Position numbers and translations under genes: made by a program
Notes under the pieces: generated by a model
What the model was told of the DNA's origin: nothing
Seen by the model: the letters and a program-made list of their open reading frames with translations, nothing else
The model's database searches: none
Shown: positions 3,266 through 55,661 of the stretch, piece after piece
Position numbering within the stretch: position 1 is the first letter of the stretch
How the letters are laid out: every line of letters starts with the position of its first letter
DNA from: Lactobacillales bacterium
Lineage (GTDB): Bacteria > Bacillota_I > Bacilli_A > RF39 > UBA660
DNA length: 64,000 nucleotides
NCBI GenBank assembly: GCA_015059545.1
Contig: SVAG01000003.1
Coordinates: forward strand, 1 to 64,000
Reading direction: 5' to 3'

Positions 3266-4519
3266 ATGATGGAAAACACTAATCAAACTAATTACGAAGA
3301 TCTTTTTGTTGATACTGCAGATAATGTTGCAGAAAAAGTAACTGATTCAAATGACTTTTATGATGATGATGATTTTATAGATACTAATGATACAGTTTCA
3401 GAACTTTTTAATACTTCTGTTGTTGAACCACAACAAGAGGTAAATTCTGAAATGTCTATACCAGTAAATAATTTTAGTTTTGAAGATATAGTTGATGAAG
3501 AAGTAGAAGAACAACCAATGACAAAATTAGAATTTAGTGATGATTCTGATATGCCTATTGAAACTGAAATTGTTAATGAAACAGAAGAACCAGAAGAAAC
3601 TGTAGATGAATTAATTGCTTTAGATGATCCAATTGAATTAGAAGAACTTGTTTCATTTGAAGAACCAATTGATGAAGAAATAGAAGAAAAAGTAGAAGAA
3701 CCAGTTATTGAAGAAGAAATATTTGTTGAAGAAGAACCAGTTGTTGAAGAAGAAAGTGTATCAGATGAAACAGTAGAATTTGATCCATTTGAATTAAGTA
3801 ATTTAACAAATGATGATATGGATAAAATGATTGAAGAAGATACTAAAAAAGAAGAATTAGATGATAGTTATGTTTTATCAAATTTCGATGTATTATTTGA
3901 TAGTTTATACAATGATGTAAATGGTGCAAATAACTTTATTTCAAATTTAATTGAACAAAAGAAAAATGTAAATTCAAATGAAGCATCATTAAAAGAAGAA
4001 GAAGAAAAACTATTAAAAGAAAAAGCAGAATTTGCTAAATATATGGAAATTCAAAAAGAAAGTATTGAAGCAGAAAAAGCTCAATGTAAAGAATTTGTTA
4101 GAACACAAAAAAATCGTATTCAAAATGAAGAAGAAAAATTCAACAATGATATGGAAGCTGCAAGAGCTGAAAGAAAATTAGCAGAAAAAGCTTTAAAAAT
4201 AGAAGAACAAAAATTAGATGAAGCTAAAGATCAATTCGAAAAATATAAAGAAGTAGAAGAAGCAAAATTAAAATCAGATAGAGAAAAATTAGAAGCAGAA
4301 AGACAACAATTTGAAAAAGAAAAAGAAATTGAATTAGAAAAAATCAAAAATGATAAAAAAGAATTACAATCACAAAAAGATCAATTTGCTAGAACAAAAG
4401 AATTAGAAGAGAAAAAATTAGAATTAGAAAGTAAAAATTTATCTCAAAGTTGTGCAAGATTCAAAGAATTAGTTTCACAATTTAATTCAGGATTTCAACA
4501 ATTACCAGAGGATAAATAA
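3266..4519 (+). CDS. Acidic coiled-coil protein, paralogue 1
   Basis: I do not recognise a family. The 417-residue product has no signal peptide or membrane segment, so it is probably cytoplasmic. Residues 1 to about 200 are strongly acidic and disordered-looking, rich in EEP and VEE runs. Residues 200-390 are heptad-like and rich in E, K, Q and A, predicting a long coiled coil. A short C-terminal segment (ARFKELVSQFNSGFQ) resembles the end of the next gene's product (LKFNELVSDFTVNIDKF). The two genes overlap by one base (TAATGG) and probably make a heteromeric filament or scaffold. A division, chromosome or spore role is possible but not shown. Confidence 0.75.
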   Translation: MMENTNQTNYEDLFVDTADNVAEKVTDSNDFYDDDDFIDTNDTVSELFNTSVVEPQQEVNSEMSIPVNNFSFEDIVDEEVEEQPMTKLEFSDDSDMPIETEIVNETEEPEETVDELIALDDPIELEELVSFEEPIDEEIEEKVEEPVIEEEIFVEEEPVVEEESVSDETVEFDPFELSNLTNDDMDKMIEEDTKKEELDDSYVLSNFDVLFDSLYNDVNGANNFISNLIEQKKNVNSNEASLKEEEEKLLKEKAEFAKYMEIQKESIEAEKAQCKEFVRTQKNRIQNEEEKFNNDMEAARAERKLAEKALKIEEQKLDEAKDQFEKYKEVEEAKLKSDREKLEAERQQFEKEKEIELEKIKNDKKELQSQKDQFARTKELEEKKLELESKNLSQSCARFKELVSQFNSGFQQLPEDK

Positions 4520-5262
4520 TGGCTAGAAAAAAAAGAAAACATGAATTAGAAATAGTAGAACCAGAATTAAATTTCTTTGATCATGAAGAACCAGAAGTTT
4601 CTAATAATGAAGAGATAAATGAAGAAGTATTTACAGAACCAGAAGTTTCTATAGAAGAACCAGAAGAAACAGATGTGTTTGATGATATGCCAAATATTTC
4701 CAATATTTTTGAAACAGCACATAATAATGTTTTACATGCAAAAAATATATTTAATAAAAATGTGGAAATGAAAAAAGAGTTAGATAGTAAATTTGAAGAA
4801 TTAGATCAAAAAGAAAAAGAACTAGATGATAAACGAAAAGAGTTTGATAGAAAACAACAAGAAGATTATGAAAAAATAAAAAAATATAAAGATGAAGTAT
4901 ACGAAAAAGTTACTCTAAAAAAAGAAGAACTTGATGTAAAAATTGGAGAATTAAAAAGATATCAAGATAAAATTAATGCCGACAAAGAAAGATTTGAAGA
5001 ATATAAAAGAAACGAGTCAGAAAGACTAAAAAAAGAAAAACAAGAAAACCGACAAGAATATGAAAAACAACAACAAGATTTAACAAGCTTAAGAAGAAGA
5101 GTAGAAGCAGCTAAAAAACAATTAGAAGATGAAAAAAGAAAATTAGAAGTAGATAGAATAAAATATAATTCGGATAAAAATGAATTAGCCAATAACCTTC
5201 TAAAATTCAATGAATTAGTTAGTGACTTTACAGTAAACATCGATAAATTTAATAATAAATAA
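4519..5262 (+). CDS. Acidic coiled-coil protein, paralogue 2
   Basis: A 247-residue product with the same plan as the preceding gene but a shorter acidic N-terminus: an E/P-rich head (about residues 1-60), a short segment NISNIFETAHNNVLHAKNIF that aligns by eye with VLFDSLYNDVNGANNFI of paralogue 1, a K/E/Q-rich coiled coil (about 75-220) and a similar C-terminal motif. It starts in the stop codon of paralogue 1, so translation is coupled. No enzymatic motif is seen. Coiled coils make distant similarity unreliable, so the function stays unknown. Confidence 0.75.
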   Translation: MARKKRKHELEIVEPELNFFDHEEPEVSNNEEINEEVFTEPEVSIEEPEETDVFDDMPNISNIFETAHNNVLHAKNIFNKNVEMKKELDSKFEELDQKEKELDDKRKEFDRKQQEDYEKIKKYKDEVYEKVTLKKEELDVKIGELKRYQDKINADKERFEEYKRNESERLKKEKQENRQEYEKQQQDLTSLRRRVEAAKKQLEDEKRKLEVDRIKYNSDKNELANNLLKFNELVSDFTVNIDKFNNK

Positions 5263-5293
5263 AATAAACCTTATTATAGGGTTTATTTTTTTT
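5262..5293. terminator. Bidirectional terminator
   Basis: A 9-bp stem AAATAAACC / GGTTTATTT with T-runs on both strands. It ends the coiled-coil operon on the plus strand and the convergent DUF1540 gene on the minus strand. Confidence 0.75.
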
Positions 5294-5438
5294 CATAACT
5301 ACCACACATTGTTTTTTCCATTTTACCATGACCGTCACAATTACAAACTTTAATATTAGTTAAACTGCACATATCATTATCATAAATACAGTATTTACAA
5401 TCATGTACTGAACAACCAATTGTTTGATTTTTTTCCAT
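5283..5438 (-). CDS. DUF1540-type small cysteine-rich protein
   Basis: A 51-residue protein with eight Cys: C9, C14, C17, C24, C32, C34 and C45 are arranged as C-x4-C-x2-C-x6-C-x7-C-x-C-x10-C, with the opening CSVHDCKYC that is typical of DUF1540 domains (one or two copies, Cys-rich, often found in spore-forming Firmicutes). Such spacing suggests metal binding. The ATG is preceded by GGTGATATT on the minus strand, a good ribosome binding site. The gene fills the gap between the coiled-coil pair and the activase cluster. The role of DUF1540 proteins is not established. Confidence 0.75.
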   Translation of the reverse strand: MEKNQTIGCSVHDCKYCIYDNDMCSLTNIKVCNCDGHGKMEKTMCGSYEKK

Positions 5439-5503
5439 AATATCACCATTAATATTTTTAACATATTAAATAAAATTATGCATATGATTTTTTAGGTGAT
5501 TAG

Positions 5504-6412
5504 ATGAAGATTAAAATAGGAATACCTAGAAGTATATTTTATTATTACTATAAAGATATATGGAAATATTTTTTTGATGAATTTAATATAGAACTTATAG
5601 TAAGTCCAAATACAAATAAAAAGATAATGGAAGATGGAATAAAGTATGCAACTGATGAAATGTGCTTATCTATGAAAAATTATATTGGTCATATAAGTTA
5701 CCTAAAAGATAAATGTGATTATATATTAGTACCAAGAATAGATAATTATGGAGTAGATAATCAAACATGTACTAATTTTTTAGCATTATATGATATTATT
5801 AATAATTTATTTGATGTTAAAATACTTAATTATAATATAAATTTAAGAAATAATGAAACAGAAGAAAAAGGACTTATTAATATTGTAACTAGTTTTGGAT
5901 ATTCTTATGAATATTCAAAAAGAGCATACAAAAAAGCTTTAAAAAAAGCTAATTCTATAAAAGAAAAACTAATAAAAGAAAATATAAAAAAATTAGATAG
6001 TAATAAAACAAAAATATTATTTGTAGGTCATCCTTATAATATACACGATAATATGATAGGAAAAGAAATGATTAAATATTTAGAAAGTAATAATATAGAA
6101 ATAATCTATAGTGATTTATTTCATAGTGATATAACAAATGATTTAAGTAAAAAATTATCATATGGATTATACTTTAAATATAATAAAGAAAATATAGGAT
6201 CAATACCACTTACAGAAGATAAAATAGATGGAATAATCTTTTTATCAACTTTTCCATGTGGACCAGATTCTCTTGTAAATGAACTTATATTTAGAAAAAT
6301 AAAAATACCTTATCTTAATTTAATAGTAGATGATATAGATGGAATGGCAGGAATGGAAACTAGAATAGAAAGTTTTATAGATATATTAGAAAGGAGAAAA
6401 CAATTTGAATAA
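5504..6412 (+). CDS. Acyl-CoA dehydratase activase-related protein (DUF2229-type)
   Basis: The product (302 residues) opens with KIGIPRSIFYYYYKDIWKYF and contains VSPNTNKKIMEDGIKYATDEMC, hallmarks of the DUF2229 module attached to 2-hydroxyacyl-CoA dehydratase activases. Its cysteines (residues near DEMC, NQTC and FPCG) could ligate an iron-sulfur cluster. In many Firmicutes this module is fused with the next two into one large protein; here the three are separate, overlapping genes. The substrate is unknown and no dehydratase alpha/beta pair is present in the window. Confidence 0.78.
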   Translation: MKIKIGIPRSIFYYYYKDIWKYFFDEFNIELIVSPNTNKKIMEDGIKYATDEMCLSMKNYIGHISYLKDKCDYILVPRIDNYGVDNQTCTNFLALYDIINNLFDVKILNYNINLRNNETEEKGLINIVTSFGYSYEYSKRAYKKALKKANSIKEKLIKENIKKLDSNKTKILFVGHPYNIHDNMIGKEMIKYLESNNIEIIYSDLFHSDITNDLSKKLSYGLYFKYNKENIGSIPLTEDKIDGIIFLSTFPCGPDSLVNELIFRKIKIPYLNLIVDDIDGMAGMETRIESFIDILERRKQFE

Positions 6413-50535: not shown

Positions 50536-50943
50536 ATGTATAAATACTATCTATTTATTATAAATAATAACGCATATAAAATATATAAAAACAATTCTTA
50601 TTATTTATATAATATATTAAATACACTTTATCATATGAAAAAGACAGATTTAATATATGGAATAAATTTATATAAAAATATTTGTGATATATTTAGTGTT
50701 AAATTGCTTAATAATTATATAAATGATAGATTTTATACTGAAATAAAAAATAAAAAGATTTTATTAAAAAATAAAGAAGAAAAAACTAGTTTAAAAATAA
50801 GATATTCAACAACTATAATAGAATCAAATATATATTTACCTCAGATATTTAGAATATTTAATATTTATAATAAAAAAATATTTGTAATAGATTTTAATAA
50901 TAAAAATTTCTTTTGGTTAAATGATGAAATAAAAAAAATATAA
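50536..50943 (+). CDS. SirA-like protein (sporulation inhibitor of replication)
   Basis: A 135-residue, Asn/Lys/Tyr/Ile-rich protein. The start MYKYYLFIINNNAYKIY and the end FVIDFNNKNFFWLNDEIK line up by eye with Bacillus SirA (YneE), whose ends are RHYYTYLI... and LAMDFNSERYGWLNPVKE. SirA binds DnaA and blocks new rounds of replication when sporulation starts. The middle is poorly conserved, so the call rests on the two ends and on the presence of other sporulation genes nearby. It is an isolated gene just before the ylbD-like gene. Confidence 0.55.
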   Translation: MYKYYLFIINNNAYKIYKNNSYYLYNILNTLYHMKKTDLIYGINLYKNICDIFSVKLLNNYINDRFYTEIKNKKILLKNKEEKTSLKIRYSTTIIESNIYLPQIFRIFNIYNKKIFVIDFNNKNFFWLNDEIKKI

Positions 50944-50969
50944 ATCATATAATAATATAGGTGATTGTA

Positions 50970-51326
50970 ATGGATAAAAAAACTAGTTTTAAAGAATTTG
51001 TAAAAAAGAATCCTTCACTTTTAACTTTTGTAAAAGAAGAAAAAATGACATGGCAAAAATTTTATGAAATGTATGATTTATATGGTGAGTCAGATGATAT
51101 ATGGAATGAATATATAAAAAAAGAAGAAGTAATTACTACTACTTCTTCAATAGGTATGTTAGATGTTTTAAATTGGTTAAAAACTATTGATTTAGATAAA
51201 ATGCAAGAATCTATAAGTAGTGTTCAAAGAGTATTAGGTGTATTAGAAGATTTAGGAACAAATAATAATCAGAATACAAAACCAGAATATAAACCTAGGC
51301 CAATCTATAAACATTTTGAAGATTAA
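50970..51326 (+). CDS. YlbD-like putative spore coat protein
   Basis: A 118-residue protein whose start (FKEFVKKNPSLLTFVKEEKMTWQKFYEMYDLYGESDDIWNEY) follows the YlbD family pattern (FKxFVxxHPxLI...WQExYExW.LyGExdxxW). YlbD is a putative coat protein in Bacillus, where ylbD-ylbE lie near ylbH (rsmD), the same order as here. It overlaps the ylbE-like gene (TAATGA). The ATG at 50970 was preferred over a GTG at 50961 that lies in the ribosome binding site GGTGAT. No catalytic residues are visible. Confidence 0.75.
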   Translation: MDKKTSFKEFVKKNPSLLTFVKEEKMTWQKFYEMYDLYGESDDIWNEYIKKEEVITTTSSIGMLDVLNWLKTIDLDKMQESISSVQRVLGVLEDLGTNNNQNTKPEYKPRPIYKHFED

Positions 51327-51547
51327 TGATATTAGATATACAATTTAAAATAAAAAATAATTTGAATTATCAAAGATATATAAGAGAAAATTCTTATTGG
51401 TATAAAATATTAAATAGAAATCCCTTAATGTTTAAACAATTTGAAGAGGAAGTAAAAACAGCATATCATTTAAGAACATCTGATAAAATAAGTAGAACAT
51501 TAGATACAATAGAATTGATACAAAATGTTGTATCAACTTTAAAATAA
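51326..51547 (+). CDS. YlbE-like protein
   Basis: A 73-residue protein with the YlbE-like pattern IRENSYWYKILNRNPLMFKQFEEEVKTAYHLRT, matching the WYRKLTRNPQxLxEFE core of Bacillus YlbE. Start overlaps the stop of the ylbD-like gene. Its function is unknown; co-occurrence with YlbD suggests a sporulation role. Nothing unusual in length. Confidence 0.75.
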   Translation: MILDIQFKIKNNLNYQRYIRENSYWYKILNRNPLMFKQFEEEVKTAYHLRTSDKISRTLDTIELIQNVVSTLK

Positions 51548-51595
51548 TGATAAAATAAAAAAAGAAAAAAATCCAAAAAGGATTTTAAGAAGGGG

Positions 51596-51638
51596 AGTTA
51601 ATATATGTTGTGAATTAATCACATTACTATTATTAACT
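51596..51638 (+). promoter_or_regulatory. Nested inverted repeats in the rsmD leader
   Basis: An 8-bp outer stem AGTTAATA (51596-51603) / TATTAACT (51631-51638) encloses an inner stem GTGA (51610-51613) / TCAC (51619-51622). It also contains a ribosome binding site AGGGGAG followed by ATG TTG TGA, a two-codon open frame. A hairpin ATCC-N5-GGAT lies just before (51571-51583). No known riboswitch recognised. Confidence 0.35.
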
Positions 51639-51672
51639 AAAAATAATTTTTTATACAATAAGGAGTAAGAAA

Positions 51673-52194
51673 ATGAGAATTATTAGTGGAAAATATAAAG
51701 GAAGAAAATTGTTAGGAGATAATATAGATGGTACTAGACCAACAATGGATAGAGTAAAAGAATCATTGTTTGGTATAATTCAAAATAACATTAAAAATAG
51801 TGTTTGTTTAGATTTGTTCGCAGGATCAGGTTCACTGGGTATAGAAGCTTTAAGTAATGGAGCTAATACTTGTTATTTTGTTGATAGTAATAAAATAGTC
51901 ATTGATACTTTAAATAAAAATACATTAAATATAGAAGGTTCTATTATTATTAAAGATGATTATTTAAATGCTTTAAATAATTTTAAAAATATTAAATTTG
52001 ATGTTATATTTTTAGATCCACCATATAAATTTAATTTGATACAATCATCACTAGATAAAATTAAAGAATATGATTTATTAAATGAAAATGGAATAATTGT
52101 ATGTGAATATGAAACAGAAGTATTTAATATAGATTATGATGTCATAAAAGAAAAAAAATATGGAAGTAAATTTATTAGAATATATAGAAAATAG
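51673..52194 (+). CDS. rsmD: 16S rRNA (guanine-966-N2)-methyltransferase
   Basis: A 173-residue Rossmann-fold methyltransferase. SAM-binding LDLFAGSGSLGIEALSNGA and the catalytic motif IFLDPPYKF (DPPY) are present, and it begins RIISGKYKGRKLLGDNIDGTRPTMDRVKESLF as RsmD does. It modifies G966 of 16S rRNA during 30S assembly. In Bacillus it is ylbH, downstream of ylbD-E, and that order is kept here with a 125-base gap. Confidence 0.93.
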   Translation: MRIISGKYKGRKLLGDNIDGTRPTMDRVKESLFGIIQNNIKNSVCLDLFAGSGSLGIEALSNGANTCYFVDSNKIVIDTLNKNTLNIEGSIIIKDDYLNALNNFKNIKFDVIFLDPPYKFNLIQSSLDKIKEYDLLNENGIIVCEYETEVFNIDYDVIKEKKYGSKFIRIYRK

Positions 52195-52239: not shown

Positions 52240-52266
52240 TTGACATTCTTTATAGAATGATATAAG
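52240..52266 (+). promoter_or_regulatory. Promoter of the bacteriocin locus
   Basis: Perfect TTGACA (52240-52245) with TATAAG (52261-52266) at a short 15-bp spacing. The spacing is suboptimal, so an activator may be needed. A strong RBS GAGGAGGTG follows. Confidence 0.5.
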
Positions 52267-52281
52267 TGAGGAGGTGAAATT

Positions 52282-54309
52282 GTGGTTAAATATCCATTTG
52301 TAAAACAAAAAGATTTAAAGGACTGTGGCGTATGTTCGTTACTTATGATTTTAAAATATTATGATGCATACATTCCAATTGAAAAATTAAGAGATATGAC
52401 TTTTACAAGTAAAAATGGAGTAACTGCTTTTCATTTAATTGAAGCAGCTAAACAAATAGGTTTTATATCTCAAGGTTTAAAAGTAACTAATTTAGAAAAT
52501 ATTCCATTACCTTGTATCGCACATGTAACTATTGATAACTCTTTTAATCATTATGTTGTAATATATGAAATTGATTATGAAAAACAAGAATTATTAATCG
52601 CTGATCCAGCAAGTAGGATTAAAAAAATTAGTTTTAAAGATTTTAATTTAATATTTAATAAAGTAATAATTACTTTTAAAAAATATAAAAAATTATTAAA
52701 CATACCAAACAACAAAAAGCTTCTTTATTCTATTTCTAATTTATTAATAAAAAATAAAACTAATTTTATAAAAATAGTAGTATTATCTTTCTTTATAATT
52801 TTATTTTCAATAATTACATCATTTTATATAGAAATAGTATTAAATAAAATAAATACATCAAACAGTCTTCTTTTTATAATTTTCACTATATTTTGTTTAA
52901 TACATATTTTAAAAAACTTATTTGATTATATAAGAGGAAAAATATTAATTAAAGTACAAAATGATATAGAACTTTCTTTATCGAATGAGATATTTAAAAA
53001 TATAATTTCACTTCCTTATAAATATTTCAAAAATAGAACAACAGGAGAGATACTTACTAGAGTAAATGATTTAAGCATTATAACAGATATAATAATAAAA
53101 ATAATAGTTACAATATTACTTGATTTATTACTTTCTATATTTGCTTGTATATTTCTATTTAATATTAATAGATCATTATTTATGATTTCATCAATTGTTA
53201 TTATATTTTATATATTAATTGTCTTAAAGTTTCAAAATGAATTAAAAATAAAATTAGAAAAAATTAAAGAAGAAAAAGCAAGTTTAAATTCTTATATTGT
53301 AGAAAATATAAGTGGTTTTGAAACATTAAAAGGATTATCGATAGAAGATAATATAATTAATAATTATAAAATAAGAAATAATAAATATATAAAATTAAGT
53401 AAAGATTATGAGAATATTTATAATAAAGAAAATTTACTTAAAAATTTATTAGAAGAAATAGGAATATGTATTTTAGTATTAGTAGGATCATTATTAGTAA
53501 TGAAAAAACAAATAACTATAGGAAATTTAATAACATTTATTTCTTTGTTTTCATATTATATAAGTCCTCTTAAAAATATAGTTGAATTAAATAAAGATAT
53601 AAAAGATGCGAAAATATCTTTTAATAGATTAAATGAAATTATTTATGATTTAAAATCAAATAATACTTTTTTAAAATTACCTTTTAATAATATAAATATA
53701 AAAAATTTAACTTATAGTTATAATAAATATAATAATGTATTTGAAAATATCAATTTAAATATAAATCAAAATGAAAAAATAATGCTTATAGGTTCTAGTG
53801 GAATGGGTAAATCAACTATTCTAAAATTACTAAAAAAATATTATCAGGTAGATAACAATAAAATATTTATTGATGATGTTGATATTAATTCTATATCAGA
53901 AGACGAAATAAATAAAAATATTACTTATGTATCACAACAAGAAATATTGTTTACAGATACACTTTATAATAATTTAGTATTAAATAGAAAAATTAAAAAT
54001 AATAAAATATTAAGTGTTGTAAAAGATACTAAGTTAAATTTTATTGATAAAAATTTAAAACTAAATATGTTTATAGAAGAAAATGGATTTAATTTATCAG
54101 GTGGTCAAAGACAAAGAATAGTACTTGCTAGATCACTACTTAATGATTTTAAAATTTTATTACTTGATGAAGCATTAAGTGAAGTAGATCAAAAAACAGA
54201 AAGAAAAATACTTAAGAATATTTTTAAAAGATATAAAAATAAAACTATTATATTAGTATCACATAGACTTGATAATAAAGATTTATTTGATAGAGTTATA
54301 TCTTTTTAG
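52282..54309 (+). CDS. ABC transporter with C39 peptidase domain (bacteriocin exporter)
   Basis: A 675-residue export protein that trims double-glycine leaders and exports peptides. The N-terminal C39 domain (about 1-140) has the catalytic Cys15 in LKDCGVC, the oxyanion Gln9, and the His of NHYVVIYEID plus Asp of IADPAS. A six-helix transmembrane domain follows (about 160-450) with the ABC coupling loops. The nucleotide-binding domain has Walker A GSSGMGKST, signature LSGGQRQR, Walker B ILLLDEAL and the H-loop SHRL. The start is a GTG at 52282 with ribosome binding site GAGGAGGTG. Four small peptides follow downstream, and no accessory HlyD-like protein is seen. Confidence 0.93.
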   Translation: MVKYPFVKQKDLKDCGVCSLLMILKYYDAYIPIEKLRDMTFTSKNGVTAFHLIEAAKQIGFISQGLKVTNLENIPLPCIAHVTIDNSFNHYVVIYEIDYEKQELLIADPASRIKKISFKDFNLIFNKVIITFKKYKKLLNIPNNKKLLYSISNLLIKNKTNFIKIVVLSFFIILFSIITSFYIEIVLNKINTSNSLLFIIFTIFCLIHILKNLFDYIRGKILIKVQNDIELSLSNEIFKNIISLPYKYFKNRTTGEILTRVNDLSIITDIIIKIIVTILLDLLLSIFACIFLFNINRSLFMISSIVIIFYILIVLKFQNELKIKLEKIKEEKASLNSYIVENISGFETLKGLSIEDNIINNYKIRNNKYIKLSKDYENIYNKENLLKNLLEEIGICILVLVGSLLVMKKQITIGNLITFISLFSYYISPLKNIVELNKDIKDAKISFNRLNEIIYDLKSNNTFLKLPFNNINIKNLTYSYNKYNNVFENINLNINQNEKIMLIGSSGMGKSTILKLLKKYYQVDNNKIFIDDVDINSISEDEINKNITYVSQQEILFTDTLYNNLVLNRKIKNNKILSVVKDTKLNFIDKNLKLNMFIEENGFNLSGGQRQRIVLARSLLNDFKILLLDEALSEVDQKTERKILKNIFKRYKNKTIILVSHRLDNKDLFDRVISF

Positions 54310-54322
54310 AAAGGATGATAAT

Positions 54323-54379
54323 ATGTGGAAAGCTTTTTTTAAATTATTAAGAAAATTTATAAGGTATGTTAAATTTTAA
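54323..54379 (+). CDS. Leaderless cationic amphipathic peptide (18 residues)
   Basis: Product MWKAFFKLLRKFIRYVKF, starting at ATG 54323 with ribosome binding site AAAGGATG, 13 bases after the exporter gene. It has six positive charges (K3, K7, R10, K11, R14, K17), no negative one, and hydrophobic residues between them in the pattern of an amphipathic helix. There is no leader, so it would act in the form translated, as leaderless bacteriocins do. It could alternatively be a pheromone or noise; the strong ribosome binding site and composition argue for a real peptide. Confidence 0.6.
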   Translation: MWKAFFKLLRKFIRYVKF

Positions 54380-54419
54380 TATGAGTTGTTCTATTTTGAA
54401 ATAAAAGAAAGGAGAAAAT

Positions 54420-54563
54420 ATGCAAGAATTAAAAAAAGAAGAATTATTAAATATAAATGGTGGAGGTTTTCACTTTGGAATAGGTATTGGAATTGTTGCT
54501 GGAATAACATTTTTAATAGGATTAATAGATGGTTATGTAAGACCTCTAGCTTGTAGAAAATAA
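54420..54563 (+). CDS. GG-leader bacteriocin precursor 1
   Basis: A 47-residue peptide. The leader MQELKKEELLNINGG (15 residues) ends in the Gly-Gly cleaved by C39 exporters. The core is hydrophobic and glycine-rich, with FHFGIGIGIVAGITFLIG giving several GxxxG-type spacings, which in class IIb two-peptide bacteriocins mediate helix pairing. It ends YVRPLACRK with one Cys. Ribosome binding site AAGGAG. It overlaps the start of precursor 2, so the two are made together. Confidence 0.82.
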   Translation: MQELKKEELLNINGGGFHFGIGIGIVAGITFLIGLIDGYVRPLACRK

Positions 54564-54724
54564 TGAAAAAATTAGATAATAAAGAATTATATAATATAGT
54601 AGGTGGAGTTAAATTTTCTGCTTCATTATTAAGTTCAATTATTAAGGGTGCTAACTTTGTACTTGAACTAGGTAGATATGTAGGAACAGCAATTCGTAGA
54701 ATGAGAACAGGAAGACTATGCTAA
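54563..54724 (+). CDS. GG-leader bacteriocin precursor 2
   Basis: A 53-residue peptide. The leader MKKLDNKELYNIVGG is cut after Gly-Gly; the core has about seven positive charges and one Glu, and ends in GRLC. The segment LGRYVGTAIRR shares LG-R-x-x-GT-x-x-R with the next product. The start codon uses the last base of the stop codon of precursor 1 (TAATG), without its own ribosome binding site, so it depends on translational coupling. With precursor 1 it could form a two-peptide bacteriocin; this pairing is inferred. Confidence 0.8.
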   Translation: MKKLDNKELYNIVGGVKFSASLLSSIIKGANFVLELGRYVGTAIRRMRTGRLC

Positions 54725-54885
54725 AAAAGATAAATAAAAAAGAAATAATTATAATAGTAATATTTATTTTATTACTACCATTTATCCAACCAATTATTGA
54801 AATTATATTTAATTGTATATTAAATTTAGGTAGAGTAATTGGAACAAATTTAAGATATGTAGAAGAAGGAATATGTTTAAAATAA
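54718..54885 (+). CDS. Membrane mini-protein of the bacteriocin locus (candidate immunity)
   Basis: A 55-residue protein with no GG-leader. Residues 9-35 are a hydrophobic helix (IIIIVIFILLLPFIQPII). Residues 36-47 read LGRVIGTNLRY, matching LGRYVGTAIRR of precursor 2, and the chain ends GICLK with a Cys near the end, as in both precursors. It starts inside precursor 2 (ATGCTAA). Immunity proteins of class II bacteriocins are often such small membrane proteins, and similarity to the toxin is striking. It could instead be a third toxin peptide. Confidence 0.65.
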   Translation: MLKKINKKEIIIIVIFILLLPFIQPIIEIIFNCILNLGRVIGTNLRYVEEGICLK

Positions 54886-54908
54886 AGGACTTTATGTCCT
54901 TTTTTAAG
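54886..54908 (+). terminator. Terminator of the bacteriocin locus
   Basis: Perfect 6-bp stem AAGGAC / GTCCTT with loop TTTAT, followed by TTTT, right after the last peptide gene. Confidence 0.75.
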
Positions 54909-54988: not shown

Positions 54989-55183
54989 TTGACAAAAGTA
55001 GTAGTAAAAAATGGTAATGTAGATAGTGCCCTTAGAATGCTAAAACAAAAGAACGTTAAAGACGGTCTCTCAAAAAAAGTACGTGAAAGACAAGAAGGTT
55101 ATTTAAAACCAGGAGTTAAAAGAAGACTAGAAAAGAAAGAAAATATTAAAAATAGTCGTAGACGTAATAAAGAAAGATACTAA
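54989..55183 (+). CDS. rpsU: 30S ribosomal protein S21
   Basis: A 64-residue basic protein with the S21 pattern: TKVVVKNGNVDSALRMLKQKN and the end KPGVKRRLEKKEN, rich in Lys and Arg. It starts at the TTG at 54989, nine bases after GGAGGG; the ATG 21 codons upstream lies before this ribosome binding site and is in the promoter region. It precedes yqeY, the usual arrangement in Firmicutes. The C-terminal tail is slightly longer than the common 57-60 residues. Confidence 0.93.
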   Translation: MTKVVVKNGNVDSALRMLKQKNVKDGLSKKVRERQEGYLKPGVKRRLEKKENIKNSRRRNKERY

Positions 55184-55217: not shown

Positions 55218-55661
55218 ATGAGAGAAAGAATATTAGAGGATTTAAAAAATGCAATGAAAGCACAAGATAAAAAAACTTTATCAGTTATAAGAATGGTAAA
55301 AGGTGCTATGCAAATGGAAGAATTAAATAAAAAAGCAGAACTTACAGATGATGAAGTAATAGCAGTAATCGCAAAACAAATTAAAACTAGAAAAGAATCA
55401 ATAGTTGAATATGAAAAAGGTAATAGAGCAGATTTAATAGAAGCAACACAAGAAGAAATAGAAATATTAAATAAATATATGCCTGAACAATTAAGTGAAG
55501 AAGAAATTAATAAAGTTATAGATGAAATATTTGAAGAAGTAAAACCATCTAGTATAAAAGATATGGGTAAAGTAATGGGATTAGCAAACTCTAAACTAAA
55601 AGGTAAAGCAGATATGGGTATGGTTAGTTCAACTATTAAAGAAAAATTAAATAATTTATAA
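55218..55661 (+). CDS. yqeY: GatB/YqeY domain protein
   Basis: A 147-residue protein with the YqeY architecture, an N-terminal helical part (RMVKGAMQMEELNKK, ARKESIVEYEKGNRADL-like) and the GatB/YqeY tail (LNKYMPEQLSEEEINKVIDEIFEE, KGKADMGMVSSTIKEKL). The tail resembles the tRNA-binding helical domain of GatB. The physiological role is not defined. Situated after rpsU, as in Bacillus. Confidence 0.92.
   Translation: MRERILEDLKNAMKAQDKKTLSVIRMVKGAMQMEELNKKAELTDDEVIAVIAKQIKTRKESIVEYEKGNRADLIEATQEEIEILNKYMPEQLSEEEINKVIDEIFEEVKPSSIKDMGKVMGLANSKLKGKADMGMVSSTIKEKLNNL

What the first reader, a model, noticed from the sequence alone, without database searches (positions are those of the whole stretch)
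52282..54885. Compact bacteriocin locus with four mini-peptides
An ABC exporter with a complete C39 leader peptidase (Cys15, His, Asp visible) is followed within 600 bases by four tightly packed tiny genes: one leaderless cationic peptide, two Gly-Gly leader peptides and one membrane mini-protein. The last three overlap by start/stop sharing. The pairing of a Gly-rich core with a cationic core suggests a two-peptide class IIb toxin. No immunity or regulator gene of known type is seen, which leaves the last mini-protein as the only candidate.
Basis: partly seen in the sequence, partly recalled or inferred. Interest (0 to 1): 0.8.

Follow-up and report, generated by a model that had tools for sequence, protein, structure and literature searches.

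The report
Order-wide conserved two-peptide secretion locus
These small-genome Bacilli (two named relatives are gut MAGs) nearly all carry one peptide exporter followed by two strongly conserved secreted mini-peptides and often a small membrane protein that imitates one of them; it looks like a two-part bacteriocin, but it is inherited and conserved like a core gene, so its real job is an open question.

Summary
Window 52282-54885 encodes a PCAT exporter (C39 peptidase + ABC; catalytic C15/H/D aligned to PCAT1), an 18-aa cationic amphipathic peptide, two GG-leader peptides (A 47 aa, B 53 aa) and a 55-aa membrane mini-protein (C), the last three overlapping. A scores above the NCBIfam cut-off for class IIb bacteriocins (TIGR03949); B and C fit no family.

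The same exporter-A-B order occurs, single-copy, in nearly all genomes of the family (B profile 51 of 54 genomes; none of about 341 other Bacilli by its core; none on plasmids by tblastn). It often sits before rpsU-yqeY, is missing as a unit in the few absentees, and shows purifying selection (dN/dS mostly 0.02-0.15 in close pairs). All A and B cores have GxxxG, and 60 of 63 of each have exactly one Cys, near the C-terminus. C is a leaderless, membrane-anchored look-alike of B (profile E 7e-10). The 18-mer is real, but in most relatives that slot holds a ~145-aa membrane-fusion-like protein.

Best reading: a two-peptide, GxxxG-paired membrane-active system with a B-mimic immunity protein. Rival: a conserved non-toxic core function.

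The parts
52240..52266 (+). promoter-like TTGACA-15 nt-TATAAG directly before the exporter ribosome site (weak, unproven)
   Evidence: read from the sequence; not listed by the consensus scan because the spacer is 15 nt
52282..54309 (+). PCAT-type exporter: C39 leader peptidase (aa 3-135), ABC membrane domain (163-430), ATPase (488-632)
   Evidence: only C39 protein in the genome
54323..54379 (+). 18-aa cationic amphipathic micro-peptide MWKAFFKLLRKFIRYVKF; slot held by a ~145-aa TM + beta-barrel protein in most relatives
54420..54563 (+). peptide A precursor, 47 aa; GG at residues 14-15, core GFHFGIGIGIVAGITFLIGLIDGYVRPLACRK
   Evidence: TIGR03949 29.3 bits against cut-off 21.5; family alignment A2
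54563..54724 (+). peptide B precursor, 53 aa; GG at residues 14-15, core VKFSASLLSSIIKGANFVLELGRYVGTAIRRMRTGRLC
   Evidence: family alignment A1: invariant G37, G41, C53, nearly invariant R45, R46
54718..54885 (+). mini membrane protein C, 55 aa; no GG leader; transmembrane stretch then LGRVIGTNLRYVEEGIC, a look-alike of the B tail
   Evidence: alignment A3; hhalign B against C 96.5%, E 7.3e-10, A against C none
54884..54905 (+). short inverted repeat AAAGGAC-TTTAT-GTCCTTT followed by T, possible end of the operon (weak)
   Evidence: read from the sequence; not listed by the scan
54989..55183 (+). rpsU (ribosomal protein S21), then yqeY 55218-55661: downstream neighbours shared with many relatives
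51326..52194 (+). ylbE and rsmD: upstream neighbours shared with several distant relatives

Best explanation
A vertically inherited, class IIb-like two-peptide system. The exporter cleaves A and B after their Gly-Gly leaders and exports them. Mature A (a Gly-rich hydrophobic helix ending DGYVRPLxC) and mature B (a cationic helix with LGRxxGTAIRRxxxxxxC) pair through GxxxG faces, possibly also through their single C-terminal cysteines, into a membrane-inserting heterodimer that acts on other cells. C has B's pairing helix on a membrane anchor without an export leader; it stays in the producer's membrane and is proposed to capture A there, acting as immunity by imitation of B. The 18-mer (or the ~145-aa protein in relatives) is an accessory of export or surface release. 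Shown here: gene order, family-wide conservation, purifying selection, GxxxG and Cys invariance, B-C resemblance, identity of the exporter. Inferred: cleavage, pairing, membrane activity, immunity, role of the 18-mer.
For: PCAT exporter with an intact triad. A above the cut-off for a class IIb family; 25 of 30 relatives' A match it. Both cores have GxxxG in 63 of 63 loci and exactly one Cys in 60 of 63, near the C-terminus. A and B are adjacent and in the same order. B and C are related by profile while A and C are not. Known class IIb immunity proteins can be this small and membrane-bound, CbnZ 42 aa (PMC6957408); in Caulobacter Cdz, two GxxxG peptides are countered by a small membrane immunity protein (PMC5380434).
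Against: Near-universal, single-copy, slow-evolving presence across about 150 genera is unusual for a toxin. C is absent from 18 of 62 scored loci with A and B, including same-genus G263. B matches class IIb models in only 5 of 30 relatives. No killing or export data exist. The B-C resemblance lies mainly in a short hydrophobic helix and could be convergent.
Confidence: 0.5

Rival explanations
1. A conserved core function that is not a weapon: A and B are secreted as a surface-bound or envelope peptide pair, or as a self-recognition factor, kept as a core trait of this order. C tunes the pair in the producer membrane rather than protecting against a toxin.
For: Present in 51 of 54 family genomes by B profile, absent elsewhere in Bacilli and in the phylum sample. 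dN/dS mostly 0.02-0.15. Cores are as conserved as the exporter and their divergence tracks housekeeping genes. Shared neighbourhood rsmD-locus-rpsU-yqeY. C is dispensable. Exporter and peptides are lost together.
Against: Peptide form (GG leader, GxxxG pair, class IIb model hit) is exactly that of two-peptide bacteriocins; no known housekeeping role for such peptides; a universal weapon could also be conserved.
Confidence: 0.33
2. A cell-cell signal: A or B is a GG-type pheromone sensed by a two-component receptor, as ComC by ComD.
For: GG leaders and PCAT exporters also serve pheromones; ComA structures are close relatives of the exporter.
Against: No receptor or regulator next to the locus. 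The only HPK10-type kinase and the only LytTR regulator in the genome lie together beside their own agrB/agrD-like genes. Two invariant transmembrane-like cores are unlike short pheromones.
Confidence: 0.1
3. An ordinary horizontally acquired class IIb bacteriocin island, as first proposed, with a leaderless third toxin (the 18-mer).
For: TIGR03949 hit; compact operon; the 18-mer is cationic and amphipathic.
Against: Vertical, order-wide distribution, no hit on plasmids or phages (peptide A only), single copy; the 18-mer alternates with a ~145-aa accessory gene and resembles its C-terminal helix weakly.
Confidence: 0.07

Closest known systems
Class IIb two-peptide bacteriocins, lactobin A/cerein 7B family (NCBIfam TIGR03949)
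   Same: Peptide A scores above the curated cut-off; GG leader, GxxxG core, PCAT exporter, adjacent partner peptide.
   Different: B does not belong by core; order-wide, single-copy, vertically inherited and strongly conserved; C mimics B.
PCAT1 / ComA-type peptidase-containing ABC transporters (4RY2, 8HF4)
   Same: Same domain order and catalytic residues; full-length alignment.
   Different: Below the TIGR01193 subfamily cut-off (413.8 against 523.85 bits); own substrates.
Mbov_0121 exporter (NF045998) and MAG1140 (NF045999) families, named after mycoplasma genes
   Same: Exporter matches NF045998 at 327 bits; 6 of 18 accessory proteins match NF045999 weakly.
   Different: Both below their cut-offs; no A/B core peptides found in the sampled Mollicutes-like genomes.
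Caulobacter CdzC/CdzD/CdzI contact-dependent killing (PMC5380434)
   Same: Two glycine-zipper secreted proteins, type I export, small membrane immunity protein.
   Different: No sequence relation tested; Gram-negative, aggregates on the outer membrane; not a core order-wide trait.
CbnZ and other short immunity proteins of two-peptide bacteriocins (PMC6957408)
   Same: Small hydrophobic membrane protein next to the peptide genes.
   Different: The passages read describe little similarity among such immunity proteins and no imitation of the bacteriocin partner.

Membership tests
Class IIb two-peptide bacteriocin | Two different GG-leader peptides encoded side by side | tested here: met
   A and B in nearly every relative with enough flank
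[quoted passage not shown]
   63 of 63 A and 63 of 63 B cores have strict GxxxG
Class IIb two-peptide bacteriocin | Match to a curated class IIb model above its cut-off | tested here: inconclusive
   A: TIGR03949 29.3 > 21.5 bits. B of the window: sub-threshold, leader only; 5 of 30 relatives' B match at E<0.01
Class IIb two-peptide bacteriocin | Dedicated membrane immunity protein next to the peptides | tested here: inconclusive
   C fits by position, size and B-mimicry but is absent from 18 of 62 scored loci
Class IIb two-peptide bacteriocin | Synergistic antimicrobial activity of the two peptides | not testable with these tools
   needs synthesis and assay
PCAT exporter | C39 peptidase domain with Cys-His-Asp plus ABC membrane and ATPase domains | tested here: met
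PCAT exporter | GG-leader substrates encoded nearby | tested here: met
   A and B; only C39 protein in the genome
GG pheromone quorum-sensing system | Cognate receptor kinase or regulator linked to the peptide | tested here: not met
   none in the locus; the only HPK10/LytTR hits lie beside their own agrB/agrD-like genes
Leaderless bacteriocin (18-mer) | Stand-alone leaderless cationic peptide with activity | tested here: inconclusive
   real micro-ORF, cationic and amphipathic, but alternates with a 145-aa accessory gene; activity not testable here
Horizontally mobile bacteriocin island | Patchy distribution and presence on mobile elements | tested here: not met
   B: 51 of 54 family genomes, none in about 341 other Bacilli by core; no plasmid hit for A or B, no phage hit for A; Mantel correlations with yqeY, rpsU, rsmD

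The most novel reading that the evidence does not exclude
A bacteriocin-like two-peptide system that has become a core trait of a whole bacterial order, inherited vertically since the order's ancestor, with a membrane-anchored partner-mimic (C) controlling it. Its function is then not ordinary killing of rivals but a conserved envelope, self-recognition or niche function based on a GxxxG-paired, perhaps disulfide-linked, secreted heterodimer.
Probability: 0.35. Interest if true: 0.8.

Novelty: new variant of a known kind. Interest (0 to 1): 0.62.

Why it matters
Bacteriocins are usually treated as patchy, fast-changing weapons. Here a class IIb-like pair is nearly universal and slow-changing in a large group of bacteria with genomes of about 0.5-1.8 Mb that have discarded much else. 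Either a weapon has become indispensable, or annotation pipelines call a core function 'bacteriocin'. The B-like membrane protein also gives a directly testable idea for how small immunity proteins of two-peptide bacteriocins, whose mechanism is described as unsolved (PMC6957408), could work: by imitating one partner.

Tried and rejected
Iterated HMMs of A, B and C merged into one another, so peptides were assigned by order and tail motif instead. Quorum sensing was examined through HPK10, LytTR and HATPase_c and found unlinked, beside an agr-like locus. A mollicute-type genome (G408) matched the profiles only by its GG leader, so it was not counted as a relative. A link between absence of C and absence of the accessory gene was looked for but has too few independent events. 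PDB sequence searches with the A, B and accessory profiles gave nothing reliable. Foldseek of the accessory protein gives membrane fusion proteins near the top (Spr0693 prob 0.99, BesA 0.97) but only at E 0.06-0.4, so it is a lead. The first translation of the 18-mer used a start one base off; the correct start is 54323.

Full report
OBSERVATION. 52282-54309 encodes a 675-aa protein with Peptidase_C39, ABC_membrane and ABC_tran domains, all well above Pfam cut-offs. It aligns end to end with PCAT1 (4RY2, E 2.3e-96), with Cys15 and the His and Asp at matching places and intact ATPase motifs. It is the only C39 protein in the 1.19-Mb genome. Downstream come an 18-aa ORF (54323-54379), A (54420-54563), B (54563-54724) and C (54718-54885). 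A and B share one base, B and C overlap by 7 nt.

KNOWN MODELS. A scores 29.3 bits on TIGR03949 (class IIb bacteriocin, lactobin A/cerein 7B; cut-off 21.5). B matches only leader-type stretches below cut-offs and C matches nothing. Of 30 diverse relatives, 25 A peptides but only 5 B peptides match TIGR03949 at E<0.01.

RELATIVES. The exporter was found in 236 of 291 genomes of the family (135 of 150 genera) at E<=1e-80, and B by single-sequence search in 255 of 288 genomes drawn from the order (all listed are the same family code). Some genomes missed by the exporter cut-off have a more diverged exporter beside the peptides. With a 30-row profile B was found in 51 of 54 family genomes and, by its core, in none of about 341 other Bacilli; the single outside match is leader-only. 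The A profile matched 19 family genomes in a phylum sample and one outside genome by leader only. tblastn of plasmids (A and B) and phages (A) found nothing. Six family genomes in which B was not found also lack A; four of them have no C39 protein at all, one has only a weak C39 hit in a 1073-aa frame, and one has a C39 hit near a contig end. So exporter and peptides tend to come and go together.

GENE ORDER. In 98 loci with enough flank, A and/or B hits follow the exporter; a few show only one of the two because of contig ends or loose ORF calls, and the three without hits end at contig ends. Some genomes appear twice among these loci. rpsU lies within 1.2 kb downstream in 23 of 42 loci with flank, and rsmD upstream in 16 of 65, in distant members too. 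Divergence of exporter, A, B and C correlates with that of yqeY, rpsU or rsmD. These facts point to an old locus inherited mainly vertically.

SELECTION. In the set of 25 loci with all genes, mean pairwise identity is 52% for the A core, 45% for the B core, 43% for the exporter, 59% for yqeY and 29% for C. In close pairs the peptides change mostly at silent sites: L007/L010 A dN 0 / dS 0.41, B 0.02 / 0.84, C 0.08 / 0.48. Sites are few, so single ratios are rough.

PEPTIDE ANATOMY. A tails read G(V/I)(I/V)DG(Y/F)xRPLxC, B tails (D/E)xGRSxG(T/S)AIRRxxxxxxC. All 63 scored A and B cores have GxxxG; 60 of 63 of each have exactly one Cys, near the C-terminus. One Cys in each partner makes a disulfide-linked A-B dimer possible; this is inference.

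C LOOKS LIKE B. C lacks a GG leader, starts with a basic stretch and a hydrophobic segment, and ends in GRxxGTxxR (alignment A3). Profile comparison of B with C gives 96.5% and E 7.3e-10, while A against C gives nothing, a control for mere hydrophobicity. The simplest functional reading is a membrane-anchored imitation of B that binds A. But C is absent from 18 of 62 scored loci on the tree, including same-genus G263, and its presence changes at least 12 times. An indispensable immunity protein should not be lost that often, unless immunity has another source or the pair is not self-toxic.

THE 18-MER. In most relatives (50 of 67 on the tree) the slot between exporter and A holds a ~145-aa protein. 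Its AlphaFold model (pLDDT 84) shows one transmembrane helix, a beta-barrel-like domain and a C-terminal amphipathic helix. Foldseek places membrane fusion proteins near the top, weakly, and 6 of 18 members match the MAG1140 family NF045999 below its cut-off. In 12 genomes lacking this gene but with a gap, 8 have a 15-20 aa ORF with a ribosome site under strict rules (0.15 expected); looser rules find it in 10. These micro-peptides have 37 Lys/Arg and no Asp/Glu in 177 residues, and 9 of 10 are amphipathic at p<=0.05. They resemble the C-terminal helix of the long accessory protein slightly (combined z 2.75; N-terminal part -0.3). I read the 18-mer as a reduced stand-in for the accessory protein, not as a third bacteriocin; this is the weakest inference here.

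FUNCTION. The architecture is that of a class IIb two-peptide bacteriocin, the distribution that of a core gene. I favour a membrane-active pair with C as a B-mimic antidote (0.5) over a non-toxic conserved function (0.33). A pheromone is less likely: the only HPK10 kinase and LytTR regulator in the genome sit beside their own agrB/agrD-like genes (the agrB/agrD naming is by eye from the sequence).

LITERATURE AND LIMITS. Full-text searches found no paper linking this group to such a locus; only open-licence papers are held. That the group is GTDB order RF39 is my inference from genome size, AT content and the NCBI names of relatives (Bacilli bacterium, deer and 'Lapin' MAGs), not tested. Nearly all genomes appear to be draft MAGs. 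The exporter tree was a quick one. No expression or activity data were available.

Noticed in passing
L164 (G000 contig C10) 4452-7266: A complete-looking agr-type locus (LytTR regulator, HPK10 kinase, AgrB-like protein, short AgrD-like ORF) in the same 1.2-Mb genome.
   Followed up: partly
L165 (G408) 4039-4431, - strand: A code-4 (mollicute-type) genome has a 130-aa protein with a clear GG leader (MQKLKDNELKDIKGGAAS) near ribosomal protein genes; PMC6609329 reports that mycoplasma C39 exporters lack known GG substrates.
   Followed up: no
window 50536-51547: SirA-like (below cut-off), YlbD and YlbE genes, the first two from families named for sporulation, in a reduced genome.
   Followed up: no
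L103 (G045), about 4951-5524 in exporter orientation: Four GG-leader peptides in a row instead of A, B and C, an expanded variant of the locus.
   Followed up: no
L013 (G263, same genus), after position 3933: A and B are followed directly by rpsU; C is missing although the exporter and peptides are intact.
   Followed up: yes
window 52282-54309: The exporter matches the Mbov_0121 family NF045998 at 327 bits and the relatives' accessory protein matches MAG1140 family NF045999 weakly, hinting at a shared ancestry with an exporter system of mycoplasmas.
   Followed up: partly
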